Positions 49,451-58,776 of a stretch of 64,000 nt of DNA are shown in pieces. Source of the stretch: Planctomycetota bacterium. Lineage in GTDB: Bacteria; Planctomycetota; UBA1135; GCA-002748355. The DNA lies in assembly GCA_027021385.1 (NCBI GenBank), contig JALUUL010000058.1, positions 49,038-113,037 of the forward strand, in the 5' to 3' direction. A model generated the notes under the pieces. It was not told the origin of the DNA. It saw only the letters and a list, made by a program, of their open reading frames with translations, and ran no database searches. A program made the position numbers and the translations under genes. Each line of letters starts with the position of its first letter. Positions within the stretch are counted from its first letter, which is position 1.

Positions 49451-50254
49451 TCAATCCCCTGCATCCTCCCGGTAGCGGGCCTCGCGTTCCCGGTCGAGCC
49501 GAGGGCGGTTCTGCAGATAGTCCTCGAGGTGGAGGATGTAGTCCTCCATCCAGGACGCGATCCGGCCCCCGAGGTCCGCGGCGTGTGCCCGCAGGACTTC
49601 CCGCCAGCCTCGGTCCCAGATCGTCCAGCTATGGGGATGGATCAAGGTATGGAGCCGTTCGTGCAGGCCGAGCTTCGTGCAGACGCAGCCCTCCCTCCAG
49701 TGGAAGCCGCTGTCCCCGAAGTAGGGGATGTCGCGGACGAGCCTCGCGTCGTAGGCGTCCGCGTGGTCCTCGGAGATCTCCGCGAGCACGGGACCGGTCG
49801 CGGGCTGGTGCTGGGCGATCGTCTCCGTCCTCCTCCCCAGGAGTTCCTCGAAGCGGGCGAGGTCCCGCCTCACCCCTTCGAGCGGGTCCCGGCCCAGGTC
49901 CATGTGGAAGCCCGGTTCGTAGTGCAGGCCGATCTCGTGCCCCAGATCCGCGATCTTCAGCATCGCCCGATAGGCGCCGGGTTCGGCCAGGTTGTAGGTC
50001 TCGGCGTGGAGCCGGAAGTAATATGTCGTCCGGACCCCTTCCTCGGCTTCCAGCTCGGCCATCTCTAGGGCCGCCCAAGGCGTGAGATCGACGTCGTGCC
50101 GGATCAGGAACCATCTTCCCCCCGGCGGATCGAAGGCGACGTCGCGGACCTTCGGGAGTTCATAGCCGAGCTCCCTCGCCTTCCGCAGGAGATAGCGGTA
50201 GTGCGGGAGGCTGTAGGCGTGCTCGCTCGAGACCTCTCGGTCCGTCACAACCAT
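49451..50254 (-). CDS. Polysaccharide deacetylase-like protein (WbmS type)
   Basis: A 267-residue protein with the divergent deacetylase barrel of WbmS-like proteins: FLIRHDVDLTPWAAL (metal-binding Asp pair), TYYFRLHAETYN, ADLGHEIGLHYEPGFH and, later, HPHSWTIWDRGW. It likely removes or modifies an acyl group on a sugar chain, but the substrate is unknown. The start overlaps the stop of the lipoyl-acyltransferase fusion by ten bases, so the two are coupled and probably act together. Confidence 0.75.
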   Translation of the reverse strand: MVVTDREVSSEHAYSLPHYRYLLRKARELGYELPKVRDVAFDPPGGRWFLIRHDVDLTPWAALEMAELEAEEGVRTTYYFRLHAETYNLAEPGAYRAMLKIADLGHEIGLHYEPGFHMDLGRDPLEGVRRDLARFEELLGRRTETIAQHQPATGPVLAEISEDHADAYDARLVRDIPYFGDSGFHWREGCVCTKLGLHERLHTLIHPHSWTIWDRGWREVLRAHAADLGGRIASWMEDYILHLEDYLQNRPRLDREREARYREDAGD

Positions 50255-51882
50255 CCCCCCCGGTAGCTCCAGGTCCGAGGATGCAGCCGGACCCCCCGCT
50301 TGCGCAGGAACTCTCGGAAGGCGTCCCGGAGCGGCCCGCGCGCGCCGCGGATCTCCGGCGGTTCGAGCAGGATGGCGCAGACCTCCGGGGGCAGGTCCTC
50401 GGGATCCTTTCCCTCCCCCGCCTCGAGGGAGACCCTTACTTCCTCCGCGGGCATCGGCTCCGTCTCCTCGAAGCCCGCGGTCTCACGGAACCTGAGAAGG
50501 TGGATCCGCCCCTCCTGCTGCACGACGAGCCGGAACTCGCCCGCGGTTTCCTCCTCCGCACAGTCGAAGCCCCTGAGCCGGAGCCCCTCCCCGAAGGCCC
50601 GGATCCAGGCCCGGAGGATCTCGATCTTCCCGTTCCGATCCGGGGGATGGGCCGCGGCCTTCAGATCGACGGCGGGGACGCCGCCGAAGAGACGCCCCGG
50701 CGGAAGATCGGTCACGAGCGAGGAGTTGGAGAGAAGGACGGCCCCCTCGCCGACCTTCACCCCGGGGAAAAGGACGCAGCCGATGCCGATCTGACTCCTC
50801 GCGGCGATCTCGAGGCCCGCGAAGCGCTGGGGATACCCGGCAAGCGCGCTCTGCCCGAAGGAATGCGTCATCAGGACCGCCTCGCGGGAGATCACGACCT
50901 CGTCCCCGACGAGCAGGGGCCGGCAGGGGTTCAGGTGGGTCCGTTCCCCGACGAATCCGTGGGAACCGATCCGGCAGAGAGCCTCAGGGTCCATCGCCCC
51001 TCCTCCCCCGATCTCCGCCTCGGGGGCGAAGAAGGCGTTCTCCCCGAGTTCGATCCTCCGGCAACGGAAACGGCAGCCCCTCCCGATCCAGGTCCCGGCC
51101 CCGGCCAGGAAGGACTCGGCCTCGATGCGGACCCCCTCCTCGATCCGCACCCCGTCCCCGAGCACGAGTCTCGAGACGAGGAGTTCGGCGCCGGGCGCGA
51201 GATGGCAGTCCGTCCCGATCTCCGCGCCGAGTCGACGGAGAAGGTCGATCCGCAGCTTGGAGGAGAGCCGTCCGAAGGCCTCCGCTTCGTTCTTCAAGGT
51301 CTCCACGAAGAGGGGATCGAGACGGCCCCCCTCCTCCCCCTCGGGGGGAGAGGAACTCGGGGCGCCCTTTGCGATCCAGGCCCGGACATCCTCGACCCGC
51401 ACGAGGCCTCCCGGCCCCCCCCCGGGCACGACCGCCAGATCGACCCCGTGTTCCCGGGCCAGGCGGCGCGCCGCCGGCGAGGCCGCGGCCCCCAAGGCGG
51501 GGGACCGGGGTCCGGGGGCTCCGGACGCGGGCCCGGCCGCTTTCCCGCTCCCCGACCTCCCGGTTTCGTCCTCCTCCCGGGCGGCCCGCCGCCCGCGGAG
51601 TTCGGCGCACAAGGCCTCGACCTCCGCCGCCGGGGGGGCCTCCAGACCGGAGGACCAGATCGCAAGGGCGGCGCCGACGGGGACCCTTGCCCCCTCGTCC
51701 TCGAGGATCCGGCAGAGGACGCCCTCCTCCTCGGCCTCGAGATCGAAGCTGGCCTTCAGGGTCTCGATCCGGCACAGGACCCTCCCCTTCGGAACGCGTT
51801 CCCCCTCCGCGCATTCCCAGGACAGGACGCGGACCTCCTTCTCGGCGGTACCGAGATACGGAGTCTTGAGCGGTCGAAGCAT
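50245..51882 (-). CDS. Lipoyl domain / subunit-binding domain / left-handed beta-helix acyltransferase fusion
   Basis: A 545-residue protein with an unusual domain order. Residues 1-78 are a lipoyl/biotinyl domain with Lys43 in IETLKASFDLEAEEEG, the lipoylation turn. Residues of about 133-170 (SPAARRLAREHGVDLAVV, GGLVRVEDVRAWI) are an E3/E1 peripheral subunit-binding domain as in dehydrogenase E2 proteins. Instead of the E2 CAT domain, residues 216-405 form hexapeptide repeats of a WbbJ/NodL-like acyltransferase, with MTHSFGQSALAG holding a likely catalytic His and GIGCVLFPGVKVGEGAVL near the end. The last 130 residues are unrecognised. It could move an acyl group from a lipoyl arm to a sugar or other hydroxyl/amino acceptor. 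The ATG follows a GGAGG; upstream in-frame starts are less likely. Confidence 0.8.
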   Translation of the reverse strand: MLRPLKTPYLGTAEKEVRVLSWECAEGERVPKGRVLCRIETLKASFDLEAEEEGVLCRILEDEGARVPVGAALAIWSSGLEAPPAAEVEALCAELRGRRAAREEDETGRSGSGKAAGPASGAPGPRSPALGAAASPAARRLAREHGVDLAVVPGGGPGGLVRVEDVRAWIAKGAPSSSPPEGEEGGRLDPLFVETLKNEAEAFGRLSSKLRIDLLRRLGAEIGTDCHLAPGAELLVSRLVLGDGVRIEEGVRIEAESFLAGAGTWIGRGCRFRCRRIELGENAFFAPEAEIGGGGAMDPEALCRIGSHGFVGERTHLNPCRPLLVGDEVVISREAVLMTHSFGQSALAGYPQRFAGLEIAARSQIGIGCVLFPGVKVGEGAVLLSNSSLVTDLPPGRLFGGVPAVDLKAAAHPPDRNGKIEILRAWIRAFGEGLRLRGFDCAEEETAGEFRLVVQQEGRIHLLRFRETAGFEETEPMPAEEVRVSLEAGEGKDPEDLPPEVCAILLEPPEIRGARGPLRDAFREFLRKRGVRLHPRTWSYRGGWL

Positions 51883-53076: not shown

Positions 53077-53253
53077 ATGTTCCGGCGCGGCACCATGCGT
53101 ACGGGAGCAGGATTGACGTCGAAGCGTTCCGATTCAGGCCGGAACCCTCCCGGAGGCGGCACACCCAGGGTCGAATGGAACCCTTGGAGAAACCTTCATG
53201 TTGACACGATATCCGAGGCCGGGTCGGCCCCTCGTTCCTGCGAGCCTTCGTGA
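53077..53253 (+). CDS. Possible leader ORF overlapping the alpha-CTD-like gene
   Basis: A 58-codon frame that starts with ATG after a perfectly placed GAAGGAGAT ribosome site and ends 56 bases inside the following gene in another frame. The peptide starts MFRRGTMRTG, is basic and Ser/Gly/Pro-rich, and has no recognisable domain. Because it follows the strong promoter and overlaps the next start, it may be a translated leader that couples to or limits expression of the main gene. It may also be chance. Confidence 0.4.
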   Translation: MFRRGTMRTGAGLTSKRSDSGRNPPGGGTPRVEWNPWRNLHVDTISEAGSAPRSCEPS

Positions 53254-54589
53254 ACTCTTTCTCCGTTCCAAGGTCCCGTTCCTGAACAAGGAAGGGAAGC
53301 AGGAACTCTTCGCGCACCTGGACAGGGGCTGTTGGGACCGTTTCACGAACGCCCAGTGCGAGGACCTCGGTAAGATGGTCGTCCAGCGCCTGCAGGGCCG
53401 CCTGTCGACCTTCCCCGAGGAACTGAAATCCCGCCGCCTTCCCCCGTCTCCGGCGGGTCTGATCCTGGACGACCTCGCGCTCGAGCCGAGAACGATGAAC
53501 GCCCTGACGAAATGCGGATACCGGGAGCGCATGGAGGATCTCGAGCAGCTGACCCTGGGGGACCTCCTCGAGCTACCTTCCTTCGGGGCGCGCTGCATGA
53601 TCGACCTCCTGACGATCCTCGAGAGTCTCGCGATCCTCGGCTGGGAGCCGGAAGGCGTCGCCCCTCTCCCCGAACCCGTCGTTCCGAAGGAGCCGGCCGC
53701 CGCCTCTCCGCGGCGGAAGATCGCCGCCCCGGCCGGGCTGCCCGCTCCCTCCCCCGAGGGGGACCCGAGCCCCGGCCTGCCGGAGGTCCCGGTCCGCGAC
53801 CCCTTCGAGCGGCTGGCGCTCGCGATGAGCGCCCACGGAGGCGCCGTCCATATCGAGGATTTCGTCACGAAGCTCGCCGGCCGGATCGGAGTCGGGGTCA
53901 CCCTCGAACGGACCCGCAAGAACCTCGAGGATCTCGACGGCCTGGAATGGCTCGACGAGGAGAAGGCCTGGTTCTGGATCCCCCGGGCGGTTCTCGGCAA
54001 CGCCGGCCTGATCCACTATCTCGTGAAGCTCCTTCCCGAGGCGGGGGAACGGAACCTCGACAGCCTCTACGTCATGCTGAAGGAGGTCCCGGAACTCCGC
54101 GGCGCGATGCCGCCCGAGGGGGTGTTTCGCAAGCTCTGCGCCCGTCTGCCCGCCGTTCCGCTGAAGCGCCCCCGAAAAGCGAAGACCGCCAAACGGAGCG
54201 GGGGAACCGGGACGAAGCGAGGACCGCGGCGCAAGGTCTTGCTCGCCGCCGGGGAACTCGAGGATGGTCGCTTCCACATGAAGATGTGCATCTCCCCTTC
54301 GATGCTGAAGAACGGGATCTTCTCGATGCCGACCGCCTTCGTCGGAAAGGTCGAGGGGCGCTTCCCGATCTTCGGGGAGAACGGCCGGCAGGCCGGAACC
54401 CTGGCCCTGCAACGCCCGACCTCCTGGGGTCTCAGGACCTTCCTCCGCTCCCTGGAAGCCGGCGAAGGGGACGTCCTCGACCTCCGGATCGACCCGAAGC
54501 TCGGGAGGGTCGAGGCCCGTCTCGAGCGCGCAGCGACGGGCGAAGACTCGGGGGTCGCCCTGGCCGCCCCGACCGGCGAGACCGGCTGA
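53198..54589 (+). CDS. RNA polymerase alpha-CTD-like regulatory protein
   Basis: A 463-residue protein. About residues 88-145 match the helix-hairpin-helix fold of the RNAP alpha C-terminal domain (LDDLALEPRTMNAL, DLLELPSFGARCMIDLLTIL in place of 'leLS.Ra.NcL ... dLL...n.G.ksl.EI'). A Pro/Ala linker follows. Residues of about 205-330 look like winged-helix or HARE-type DNA-binding modules (LERTRKNLEDLDGLEWL, FWIP). A basic linker (KRPRKAKTAKRSGG) leads to a C-terminal beta domain (about 345-450). No catalytic motif is seen. A GGAG lies eight bases before the ATG. Together with its strong promoter this suggests an abundant DNA- or RNAP-associated regulator. The family is not named with confidence. 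Confidence 0.65.
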   Translation: MLTRYPRPGRPLVPASLRELFLRSKVPFLNKEGKQELFAHLDRGCWDRFTNAQCEDLGKMVVQRLQGRLSTFPEELKSRRLPPSPAGLILDDLALEPRTMNALTKCGYRERMEDLEQLTLGDLLELPSFGARCMIDLLTILESLAILGWEPEGVAPLPEPVVPKEPAAASPRRKIAAPAGLPAPSPEGDPSPGLPEVPVRDPFERLALAMSAHGGAVHIEDFVTKLAGRIGVGVTLERTRKNLEDLDGLEWLDEEKAWFWIPRAVLGNAGLIHYLVKLLPEAGERNLDSLYVMLKEVPELRGAMPPEGVFRKLCARLPAVPLKRPRKAKTAKRSGGTGTKRGPRRKVLLAAGELEDGRFHMKMCISPSMLKNGIFSMPTAFVGKVEGRFPIFGENGRQAGTLALQRPTSWGLRTFLRSLEAGEGDVLDLRIDPKLGRVEARLERAATGEDSGVALAAPTGETG

Positions 54590-56790: not shown

Positions 56791-58776
56791 TCAGTACTCC
56801 TCGAGGAGGGGCAGGCAGGCGGCGACGATCTTGCGGGCGGAGGGGAGGACGAGATCCTCGAGTTCGGGGCTCGAGGGGATCGGGCAGGCCTCGCCCGCGA
56901 CCTTGACGGGCGGGGCGTGCAGCCAGGGGAAAATCCGCTCCGCGAGCCCTCCGAGGACGCGGTCCCCGATCCCGAGGACCCCGCTGGCCTCGTGGACGAC
57001 GACGAGCCGGCCGGTCTTCTCGACGGAAGCCGCGACCGCTTCCTCGTCGAGGGGGGCGAGGCTGCGGAGGTCGAGGATCTCGATCGAGTATCCGCGGGCG
57101 GCCAGGGCCTCCGCCGCCTCCCGGGCGAGCATCAGGCCGTGTCCGTAGGTCACGAGACTCAGGTCCCCGCCCTCGCGGTCGAGACGGGCCGACCCCAGCG
57201 GCACGCAATGGCCGGCCGGGGGCATGCGGCCCTCCTCGGGGTAGAGGAGCTTGGGCTCGAGGAAGAGCACCGGCTCCTCGCTCCGGATCGAGGTGCGCAG
57301 GAGGCCGACCGCGTCCTCGACCGTGGCCGGCATGACGACCCTGAGCCCTGGGACATGGACGAAGAGGGCCTCGAGGCTCTGGGAATGCGTCGCCCCATAG
57401 CCCCGCCGCCGGCCGACCGGCATGCGGAGCGTGAAGGGCACCCGCACGGCGCCCCCGTACATGTAGCGCAGCTTCGCCGCGTGGTTCACGAGGGCGTCCA
57501 TGCAGCAGGTCGCGAAATCCCCGAACATCAGCTCGACGACCGGACGGAGCCCCCCCGCCGCGGCGCCGACCCCGAGCCCGACGAAGGAGTTCTCGCAGAT
57601 CGGGGTCTCGACGACCCGTTCCGTTCCGAATTCCTCGAGGAGACCGCGGCTCACGCCGAAGGCGCCGCCGTAGACCCCGATGTCCTCGCCGAGGAGGAAG
57701 ACCCTCTCGTCGCGGCGCATCTCCCCGCGGAGGACGTCGCGGATCGCCTCGGTCAGCGTCGTCCGCTCGCCTTCCGCGAGATCCCCGGGAGCCTCCCCGC
57801 CCTCGGCGGGGAGCAGTTCGAGGTCTCCGAGCGCGCAGGCGAGCCCCCCCGCCGGCGAGGCCAGGACCTCGCGCACCGCCTCCTCGAGTTCCTCTTCGAT
57901 CTCCGCCCGGATCCGGCCCAGTTCGGCCTCCTCCAGTCCCGCGCGCTCCGCCCAGAGACGCAGGGGATCCCTCTCCCGCCAGCGCGCCTCCTCCTCCCGA
58001 CTCCGGTAGACGCGCGCGTCGCTCTTCGAATGCCCGGACTGGCGGTAGGTCCGGCACTCGAGGAAGGCCGGACCGTCCCCGCGGCGCGCGCGGTCGAACA
58101 GAGGGGCGGCGGCTTCCCGCACGGCGGCGAGGTCGTTGCCGTCGCAGGACCTCGCCTCGAGATCCCGGTAGCGCCCGGCCCAGTCGACGAAGTCCCCGGC
58201 CGCGAAGCGCGACACCGGGGTCGACATCGCGTAGAGGTTGTTCTCCATCACGAAGACGACCGGCAAGCGGTGGAGGGCGGCGAGGTTCAGGGTCTCGTGG
58301 AAGTTCCCGGTGGCCGCGGCCCCGTCCCCGAGATAGGCGACGACGATCCGGCCGGGGCGGAGACGCTTCGCGGCCAGGGCGAGGCCCGCGGCGATCGGCA
58401 GGCCCCCGCCCGTGATCCCGTTGCTGCCCATGTGCCCGAGTTCGGGGACGGCGACGTGCTGGCTCCCGCCCTTGCCGCGGCAATACCCGCTCTCCTTCCC
58501 CGCGATCTCGGCCAGCAGGCGGCGCGGATCCGCCCCCAGCGCGAGGAGATGGCCGTGCCCCCGGTGCGTGCTCGTCACGCGGTCCCCCTCGACGAGCAGC
58601 GAGGAGACTCCGACCGGGACGGCTTCCTGTCCGATGCAAAGATGCGTCGTCCCCCCGATCTTCCCCTCCCCGACGAGTTCGAAGAGCCGTTCCTCGAAGA
58701 GCCGGATCCCGAGCATGCGGGCATAGAACCCCCGCGCGGTCTCGGGCTCGATCGGGTCGCTCGGTCTCGGGCTCAA
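56791..58776 (-). CDS. 2-oxo acid dehydrogenase E1, alpha and beta subunits fused
   Basis: A 661-residue thiamine diphosphate enzyme. The alpha half (1-320) has GQEAVPVGVSSLL, STHRGHGHLLALG, GSNGITGGGLPIAAGLAL and the ThDP motif GDGAAATGNFHETLNLAALH. The beta half (about 335-661) starts TEAIRDVLRGEMRRDERVFLLGEDIG and has ETPICENSFVGLGVGAA, and ends with a transketolase C-terminal domain (VTYGHGLMLAREAAEAL). Such enzymes decarboxylate pyruvate, branched-chain 2-oxo acids or acetoin and load the acyl group on a lipoyl domain. The E2 and E3 genes are absent; the only lipoyl protein nearby is the acyltransferase fusion at 50.2 kb. TTG start. Confidence 0.9.
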   Translation of the reverse strand: MSPRPSDPIEPETARGFYARMLGIRLFEERLFELVGEGKIGGTTHLCIGQEAVPVGVSSLLVEGDRVTSTHRGHGHLLALGADPRRLLAEIAGKESGYCRGKGGSQHVAVPELGHMGSNGITGGGLPIAAGLALAAKRLRPGRIVVAYLGDGAAATGNFHETLNLAALHRLPVVFVMENNLYAMSTPVSRFAAGDFVDWAGRYRDLEARSCDGNDLAAVREAAAPLFDRARRGDGPAFLECRTYRQSGHSKSDARVYRSREEEARWRERDPLRLWAERAGLEEAELGRIRAEIEEELEEAVREVLASPAGGLACALGDLELLPAEGGEAPGDLAEGERTTLTEAIRDVLRGEMRRDERVFLLGEDIGVYGGAFGVSRGLLEEFGTERVVETPICENSFVGLGVGAAAGGLRPVVELMFGDFATCCMDALVNHAAKLRYMYGGAVRVPFTLRMPVGRRRGYGATHSQSLEALFVHVPGLRVVMPATVEDAVGLLRTSIRSEEPVLFLEPKLLYPEEGRMPPAGHCVPLGSARLDREGGDLSLVTYGHGLMLAREAAEALAARGYSIEILDLRSLAPLDEEAVAASVEKTGRLVVVHEASGVLGIGDRVLGGLAERIFPWLHAPPVKVAGEACPIPSSPELEDLVLPSARKIVAACLPLLEEY

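What the first reader, a model, noticed from the sequence alone, without database searches (positions are those of the whole stretch)
50245..51882. E2-like swinging arm fused to a sugar-type acyltransferase
Lipoyl domain (Lys43), subunit-binding domain and a hexapeptide acyltransferase in one chain look like a dehydrogenase E2 whose CAT domain has been replaced by a left-handed beta-helix enzyme. It overlaps a WbmS-type deacetylase gene, and a fused E1 enzyme lies 5 kb away. Together they suggest a route in which a 2-oxo acid is decarboxylated and the acyl group is handed from lipoate to a surface sugar, not to CoA. I know of no described system of this kind.
Basis: partly seen in the sequence, partly recalled or inferred. 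Interest (0 to 1): 0.75.

Follow-up and report, generated by a model that had tools for sequence, protein, structure and literature searches.

The report
Lipoate-armed sugar acyltransferase with own E1
A bacterial protein joins the predicted lipoate-carrying arm and docking domain of a pyruvate-dehydrogenase-type complex to an acyltransferase core of a type often used on sugars, and its gene keeps company across phyla with genes for an E1-type decarboxylase and often a likely deacetylase; together they would hand an acyl group made from a 2-oxo acid to a sugar instead of to coenzyme A.

Summary
Window 50245-51882 (minus strand) encodes 545 residues: lipoyl domain (Lys43), E3-binding domain, hexapeptide acyltransferase core (His340), and a conserved C-terminal domain without a usable Pfam or PDB match. 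It is a family: 71 of 71 aligned members have the lipoyl lysine and hexapeptide repeats; 68 match the binding domain. In 26 of 30 related loci E1 genes lie upstream on the same strand within 10 kb (25 within 400 bp), in one more 13 kb upstream; the other three genomes have a fused E1 on another contig. No ordinary E2 core or E3 was found in the DNA held of these 30 loci or in the window (E2 control 23 of 23). The overlapping gene is predicted to fold like CE4 deacetylases, WbmS among the tied best matches, and directly follows the acyltransferase in 19 of 30 loci. The genome has a separate E1/E2/E3 set and lipoylation genes. A second family fuses a lipoyl domain to NeuD/PglD-type acetyltransferases. 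Best reading: a 2-oxo acid dehydrogenase complex whose E2 core was swapped for a sugar-type acyltransferase, probably putting a new acyl group on a deacetylated amino sugar. Lipoylation, substrate and acceptor are untested; a CoA-acylating version is not excluded.

The parts
50245..51882 (-). E2-like acyltransferase (called LipHex here), 545 aa: lipoyl + binding domain + hexapeptide core + unassigned C-terminal domain
   Evidence: Pfam; alignments; codons
51661..51870 (-). lipoyl domain, residues 5-74; Lys43 codon at 51754-51756
51382..51483 (-). peripheral subunit (E3)-binding domain, residues 134-167
   Evidence: PF02817; 68 of 71 members match
50653..51228 (-). hexapeptide (left-handed beta-helix type) acyltransferase core, about residues 219-410; His340 at 50863-50865
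   Evidence: PF00132; PDB sequence matches to hexapeptide acetyltransferases with His340 aligned to the His of SHSLDY in 3ect
50248..50649 (-). conserved C-terminal domain, residues 412-545, with R523, R527, R532, P535 and W538 conserved
   Evidence: conserved residues; no usable Pfam or PDB sequence match
49451..50254 (-). WbmS/CE4-type deacetylase-like protein, 267 aa, overlapping the acyltransferase gene by 10 bp
56791..58776 (-). fused E1 alpha/beta 2-oxo acid dehydrogenase, 661 aa
   Evidence: PF00676, PF02779, PF02780; counterparts beside LipHex in relatives are up to 66% identical

Best explanation
LipHex is most likely the E2 component of an unusual 2-oxo acid dehydrogenase complex whose CoA-acylating core has been replaced by a hexapeptide acyltransferase of a type often used on sugars, so that the acyl group would pass from lipoate to a sugar (probably an amino sugar) and not to CoA. 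Steps: (1) the E1 alpha/beta enzyme (family shown by sequence; activity inferred) decarboxylates a 2-oxo acid on thiamine diphosphate; (2) it reductively acylates lipoate on Lys43 (lipoylation inferred; domain, motif and lipoylation genes shown); (3) the arm swings into the hexapeptide core, where His340 would activate the acceptor's amino or hydroxyl group (inferred from the family); (4) the acceptor is probably made ready by the deacetylase-like partner, which would remove an N-acetyl group so that a different acyl group can be put on, formally like LpxC followed by LpxD (recalled) but with lipoate in place of acyl carrier protein (inferred); (5) dihydrolipoate would be re-oxidised by an E3 encoded elsewhere (the genome's ordinary cluster has one; docking through the binding domain is inferred).
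For: Domains and K43/H340 conservation. E1 genes (whole, split into alpha and beta, or cut by a contig end) upstream on the same strand within 10 kb in 26 of 30 related loci, 25 of them within 400 bp, from Planctomycetota, Actinomycetota, Terriglobia, Oligoflexia and Deltaproteobacteria. Of the four others, L047 has a fused E1 13 kb upstream on the same strand and contig; the genomes of L044, L045 and L048 have one on another contig; the four are 63-70% identical to the window's E1, and in L044's and L048's genomes it lies beside cysS as in the window. LipHex and E1 distances correlate, r 0.917 over 27 loci including the window; LipHex and deacetylase-like protein 0.898 over 21 (shared descent inflates both). 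No E2 core or E3 at E 1e-3 in the 30 loci or window; the E2 query finds 23 of 23 control loci (no such control for E3). In 4 of 13 more distant E1 loci an ordinary E2 directly follows the E1, the slot that LipHex fills (three of the 13 were picked because one search showed a lipoyl match there). Partner with CE4/WbmS fold. WcaF family as best NCBIfam match of the core. Parallel lipoyl-NeuD/PglD family: Biotin_lipoyl, PglD_N and Hexapep in 30 of 30 aligned, E-T-x-K invariant; convergent with LipHex in L067 and, as a partial gene at the contig end, in L063. L062 lies among NeuB, cytidylyltransferase and flippase genes. Separate E1/E2/E3 set, a LipA-like gene and two LplA/LipB-family genes in the genome.
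Against: No acceptor is identified. PDB sequence matches of the core mix sugar enzymes with streptogramin, chloramphenicol and dipicolinate acetyltransferases. The core keeps the GGVPA turn, a form of which CoA-dependent hexapeptide enzymes also show, so CoA could be acceptor or donor. 10 of 30 loci show no deacetylase-like match in the DNA held, 7 of them with over 2 kb downstream. The Oligoflexia member (L062) lacks the lipoyl and binding domains although E1 genes sit next to it. In 3 of 71 members the binding domain is not matched. In three loci (L046, L075, L076) the genes lie beside a benzoyl-CoA reductase-type cluster, which hints at CoA chemistry. Seven of nine Actinomycetota loci have a sulfatase-family gene upstream, not a sugar-synthesis gene. 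Parts of the core are of low model confidence.
Confidence: 0.55

Rival explanations
1. A convergent E2: the hexapeptide core transfers the acyl group from lipoate to CoA, so the complex simply makes an acyl-CoA by another fold, as CatB-type and CAT-type chloramphenicol acetyltransferases reach the same reaction with different folds (recalled).
For: Arm, docking domain and E1 partner are those of a CoA-forming complex; hexapeptide enzymes of this type use CoA (recalled); three loci neighbour benzoyl-CoA-type pathway genes.
Against: The genome already has an ordinary E2 with its own E1 and E3; it does not explain the tightly linked deacetylase-like gene (19 of 30) or the lipoyl-NeuD/PglD family.
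Confidence: 0.2
2. An ordinary acyl-CoA-dependent sugar acyltransferase: the arm and docking domain only tether it to a dehydrogenase complex that supplies acyl-CoA nearby.
For: The core resembles CoA-dependent acetyltransferases; in L062 a relative without the arm sits beside E1 genes.
Against: The lipoyl lysine is invariant in 71 of 71, which a mere tether would not need; no ordinary E2 that could make acyl-CoA was found in the E1 loci.
Confidence: 0.12
3. Lipoate-dependent transfer to an acceptor that is not a sugar, such as an amino acid, lipid or protein amine.
For: Hexapeptide enzymes acylate many acceptors (dipicolinate precursors, antibiotics; names); no glycosyltransferase among the ten window proteins scanned; the C-terminal domain is unassigned.
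Against: CE4-fold partner, WcaF-type match and sugar-related neighbours in some relatives.
Confidence: 0.12
4. Chance fusion or assembly artefact.
For: The window's genome is in 86 contigs and the named relatives are metagenome-assembled.
Against: 212 proteins found, from several sources; lipoyl, binding and hexapeptide domains together in 68 of 71 scanned members; several phyla.
Confidence: 0.01

Closest known systems
E2 (dihydrolipoyl acyltransferase) of pyruvate/2-oxo acid dehydrogenase complexes
   Same: lipoyl domain, binding domain, linker and E1 partner gene
   Different: no CAT-type catalytic domain (PF00198 not among its Pfam matches); hexapeptide core instead; no E3 found in the locus
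WcaF, galactoside/maltose O-acetyltransferase and CatB/Vat hexapeptide acetyltransferases
   Same: hexapeptide repeats, histidine aligned with that of 3ect, GGVPA-type turn
   Different: carries its own lipoyl arm; below the curated cut-off of all 25 NCBIfam families shown of 34 (WcaF family 59 of 192 bits); extra C-terminal domain
Lipoyl-NeuD/PglD fusions (named by some sources NeuD-family sugar O-acyltransferase or UDP-perosamine 4-acetyltransferase)
   Same: lipoyl domain with E-T-x-K fused to an acetyltransferase of the hexapeptide class
   Different: another enzyme family, with PglD_N; E3_binding not matched; no E1 match in the two stretches examined, L087 and L088
WbmS (PDB 3hft) and CE4 deacetylases such as PplD and ArnD (8t0j)
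   Different: no Pfam match, no significant sequence match in PDB; substrate unknown
LpxC then LpxD (recalled): deacetylate, then re-acylate UDP-glucosamine
   Same: logic of deacetylase plus hexapeptide acyltransferase using a carried acyl group
   Different: the carrier would be a fused lipoyl arm, not ACP; the genome has LpxC as well
Agg4 of tetronate biosynthesis (PMC4979870, passages read)
   Same: an acyltransferase that acetylates a hydroxyl of a small molecule; its relation to E2 domains is recalled, not seen in the passages
   Different: tailoring enzyme of an antibiotic; the passages mention no lipoyl arm

Membership tests
2-oxo acid dehydrogenase E2 | lipoyl domain with modifiable lysine | tested here: met
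   PF00364 above cut-off; K43 71 of 71; actual lipoylation not tested
2-oxo acid dehydrogenase E2 | peripheral subunit-binding domain | tested here: met
   PF02817 E 9.7e-13
2-oxo acid dehydrogenase E2 | CAT-type catalytic domain (PF00198) | tested here: not met
   no PF00198 match in the protein; the one PF00198 place found in the genome is on another contig; E2 core query at E 1e-3 hits 0 of 31 sequences (30 loci and window), control 23 of 23
2-oxo acid dehydrogenase E2 | partner E1 encoded with it | tested here: met
   26 of 30 loci within 10 kb, one at 13 kb, three genomes with a fused E1 on another contig
2-oxo acid dehydrogenase E2 | acyl transfer to CoA | not testable with these tools
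   needs biochemistry
Hexapeptide (LbH) acyltransferase | hexapeptide repeats | tested here: met
   PF00132 in 71 of 71 members
Hexapeptide (LbH) acyltransferase | catalytic histidine | tested here: met
   H340 in 70 of 71, aligned to the SHSLDY His in 3ect; its catalytic role is recalled
Hexapeptide (LbH) acyltransferase | left-handed beta-helix trimer | tested here: inconclusive
   many short strands in the model but partly low pLDDT; the 50 VIA rows shown cover mainly residues 1-81; trimer not modelled
WcaF family acetyltransferase (NF007797) | curated score cut-off | tested here: not met
   59.1 bits against 192
CE4/WbmS deacetylase (partner gene) | NodB-type fold | tested here: met
CE4/WbmS deacetylase (partner gene) | Pfam deacetylase profile match | tested here: not met
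   no Pfam family at E 0.1
CE4/WbmS deacetylase (partner gene) | Asp-His-His metal site | tested here: inconclusive
   R52 H53 D54 D56, H111, Q148 H149, H202 and H206 invariant in 41 sequences; geometry not checked
E1 alpha/beta 2-oxo acid dehydrogenase | E1_dh, Transket_pyr and Transketolase_C domains | tested here: met
   NCBIfam: the beta-subunit subfamily PRK09212 is reached (324.7 of 321 bits), the pyruvate equivalogs are not, so the substrate is open

The most novel reading that the evidence does not exclude
Bacteria have a whole class of lipoate-armed sugar acyltransferases, with at least two separate fusions (this E1-linked hexapeptide family and the lipoyl-NeuD/PglD family), in which 2-oxo acids are oxidised to acyl-lipoate and the acyl group is written directly onto amino sugars without passing through CoA, after a dedicated deacetylase has cleared the site.
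Probability: 0.45. Interest if true: 0.88.

Novelty: new variant of a known kind. Interest (0 to 1): 0.73.

Why it matters
Lipoate arms are textbook parts of a handful of complexes that make acyl-CoA or move one-carbon units. A conserved family that couples its own E1 to a sugar-type acyltransferase would be a new outlet for 2-oxo acid oxidation, a CoA-free way of acylating glycans, and a clean case of an E2 core swapped for an unrelated fold. It gives testable hypotheses for a gene set that sources name only loosely (E3 binding domain-containing, biotin/lipoyl-containing, acetyltransferase-like or hypothetical protein).

Tried and rejected

The 30 are 27 of the 28 loci and 3 of the 6. Many contigs are short, so absences hold only for the DNA held. 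Gene names given without a Pfam call are by eye. Cluster 3 also held an overlong ORF of L057, which I ignored.

Full report

It is a family. The protein search found 212 proteins at E 1e-5 or better, the query included. Of 71 aligned, K43 and T41 are invariant and H340 is kept in 70; 71 match Biotin_lipoyl, 71 Hexapep and 68 E3_binding. A scan of species genomes with alignment A1 returned 28 loci, from Planctomycetota, Actinomycetota, Terriglobia, Oligoflexia and Deltaproteobacteria by record title. In a sample of 294 genomes of the window's phylum, 107 have some match, 7 a full-length or near full-length relative; the other listed matches cover one part of the protein, nearly all of them the arm. 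The window genome belongs with Planctomycetota: a same-family genome (G229) has its match on a contig of 22848 bases, the length of the Planctomycetota record DROQ01000127.1.

E1 is the partner. In the window the fused E1 gene is 4.9 kb away. In relatives it is usually the gene directly upstream: 26 of 30 loci have E1 on the same strand within 10 kb, 25 within 400 bp; in some it is split into alpha and beta genes or cut by the contig end. Of the four exceptions, L047 has a fused E1 13 kb upstream on the same strand of the same contig; the genomes of L044, L045 and L048 have one on another contig. The four are 63-70% identical to the window's E1. In L044's and L048's genomes it lies beside cysS, as in the window. 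LipHex and E1 distances correlate at r 0.917 over 27 loci (351 pairs), LipHex and the deacetylase-like protein at 0.898 over 21 loci (210 pairs); common descent of the genomes contributes to both. Among the 294 phylum genomes, the E1 matches at or above 60% identity lie in four genomes, the window's included, and all four also have LipHex.

No ordinary E2 was found with it. A query with this genome's ordinary E2 core finds nothing at E 1e-3 in the 30 loci or the window, but finds 23 of 23 control loci of other genomes of the phylum; an E3 query also finds nothing there, without a matching control. The ordinary complex lies on another contig: genes read as LipA, E1 alpha, E1 beta, E2, a second E1 alpha and E3 in a row, of which the E2 and E1 beta were found by Pfam families and the others named by eye. 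Two LplA/LipB-family genes are present, so lipoylation is plausible. I looked at 13 of the 33 other genomes of the phylum that have a more distant fused or adjacent E1. In 4 of the 13 (L123-L126) an ordinary E2 follows the E1 directly, the place that LipHex takes here; the other nine showed no E2 core in the DNA taken, with little DNA downstream in L118 and L127. Three of the four (L123-L125) had been picked because one search showed a lipoyl match next to the E1.

A parallel. In L067 the gene convergent with LipHex encodes a lipoyl domain fused to a PglD/NeuD-type acetyltransferase. The search with it returned 780 proteins at E 1e-5; the 120 listed nearly all carry the lipoyl domain, but the unlisted ones may include plain NeuD proteins. 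Of 30 taken from the list, all 30 match Biotin_lipoyl, PglD_N and Hexapep, none is reported with E3_binding at E 0.01, and E-T-x-K is invariant. It occurs full length in 3 of 12 genomes searched, those of L064, L067 and L069, and as a partial gene at the contig end just after LipHex in L063. In L087 a sulfotransferase-family gene precedes it, in L067 and L088 one that looks alike by eye; the L088 stretch also has genes that look like a flippase and chain-length determinants (by eye).

Mechanism. The anatomy says: E1 loads lipoate; the arm delivers to a hexapeptide acyltransferase; a deacetylase-like enzyme accompanies it. A deacetylase plus an acyltransferase in one operon makes sense if an acetyl group is removed and a different acyl group put on. 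The shown steps are domains, residues, gene order and predicted folds; the inferred ones are lipoylation, E1 activity, the acyl group, the acceptor and the role of E3. The main rival is transfer to CoA. Evidence against the sugar reading is listed above, chiefly the arm-less L062 protein, the mixed PDB matches and the benzoyl-CoA-type neighbours in L046, L075 and L076.

Literature. Ten searches of the open-access library listed no description of a lipoyl-hexapeptide acyltransferase or of lipoate-dependent sugar acylation. From PMC4979870 I read passages on Agg4, from PMC7489565 passages, from PMC3849452 passages that name wbmS as a gene of the Bordetella O-antigen locus; PMC6067878 (lipoate-binding proteins in sulfur oxidation) was seen only in the listing with the start of its abstract.

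Noticed in passing
L067:2444-3568 (-); L087:9951-11063 (+); L088:9503-10813 (-): A second family fuses a lipoyl domain to NeuD/PglD-type acetyltransferases (30 of 30 aligned members), beside a sulfotransferase-family gene in L087 (Pfam) and, by eye, in L067 and L088.
   Followed up: partly
L062:8022-11104 (+) and L108 (genome G305): Oligoflexia member: E1 alpha, E1 beta and a LipHex core without lipoyl or binding domain, in a NeuB/cytidylyltransferase/flippase locus; the same genome has a stand-alone 84-residue lipoyl domain beside what looks like a dihydrolipoyl dehydrogenase gene, a possible trans-acting arm.
   Followed up: partly
L046:12451-20878, L075:13020-19900, L076:5591-14386: In 3 of 30 loci the E1-LipHex-deacetylase genes lie beside a cluster that looks like the benzoyl-CoA reductase pathway (BadF/BcrA-type ATPase and enoyl-CoA hydratase family confirmed by Pfam in L046). 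The reason is unknown.
   Followed up: partly
L059, L060, L061, L064, L068, L069, L070: Seven of nine Actinomycetota loci have a sulfatase-family gene directly upstream of E1 alpha (Pfam-checked in L069); in L063 and L067 the contig begins too close to tell.
   Followed up: partly
L046, L052, L053, L056: A glycosyltransferase gene (family 4, Pfam-checked in L052) sits directly downstream of the deacetylase-like gene in L052, L053 and L056, and upstream of E1 in L046.
   Followed up: partly
L122:1730-4201 (+): Another E1 alpha/beta protein of the phylum appears to carry a lipoyl domain at its own C-terminus (824 residues, one frame).
   Followed up: no
window 53198-54589 (+): Protein with a weak, sub-threshold RNA polymerase alpha-CTD match beside LipHex; repeated relatives lie beside LipHex in L044 and L048, so local gene order is shared in this group.
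   Followed up: no
L002:8707-9789 (+): The genome's ordinary dehydrogenase cluster seems to have a second E1 alpha gene between E2 and E3.
   Followed up: no
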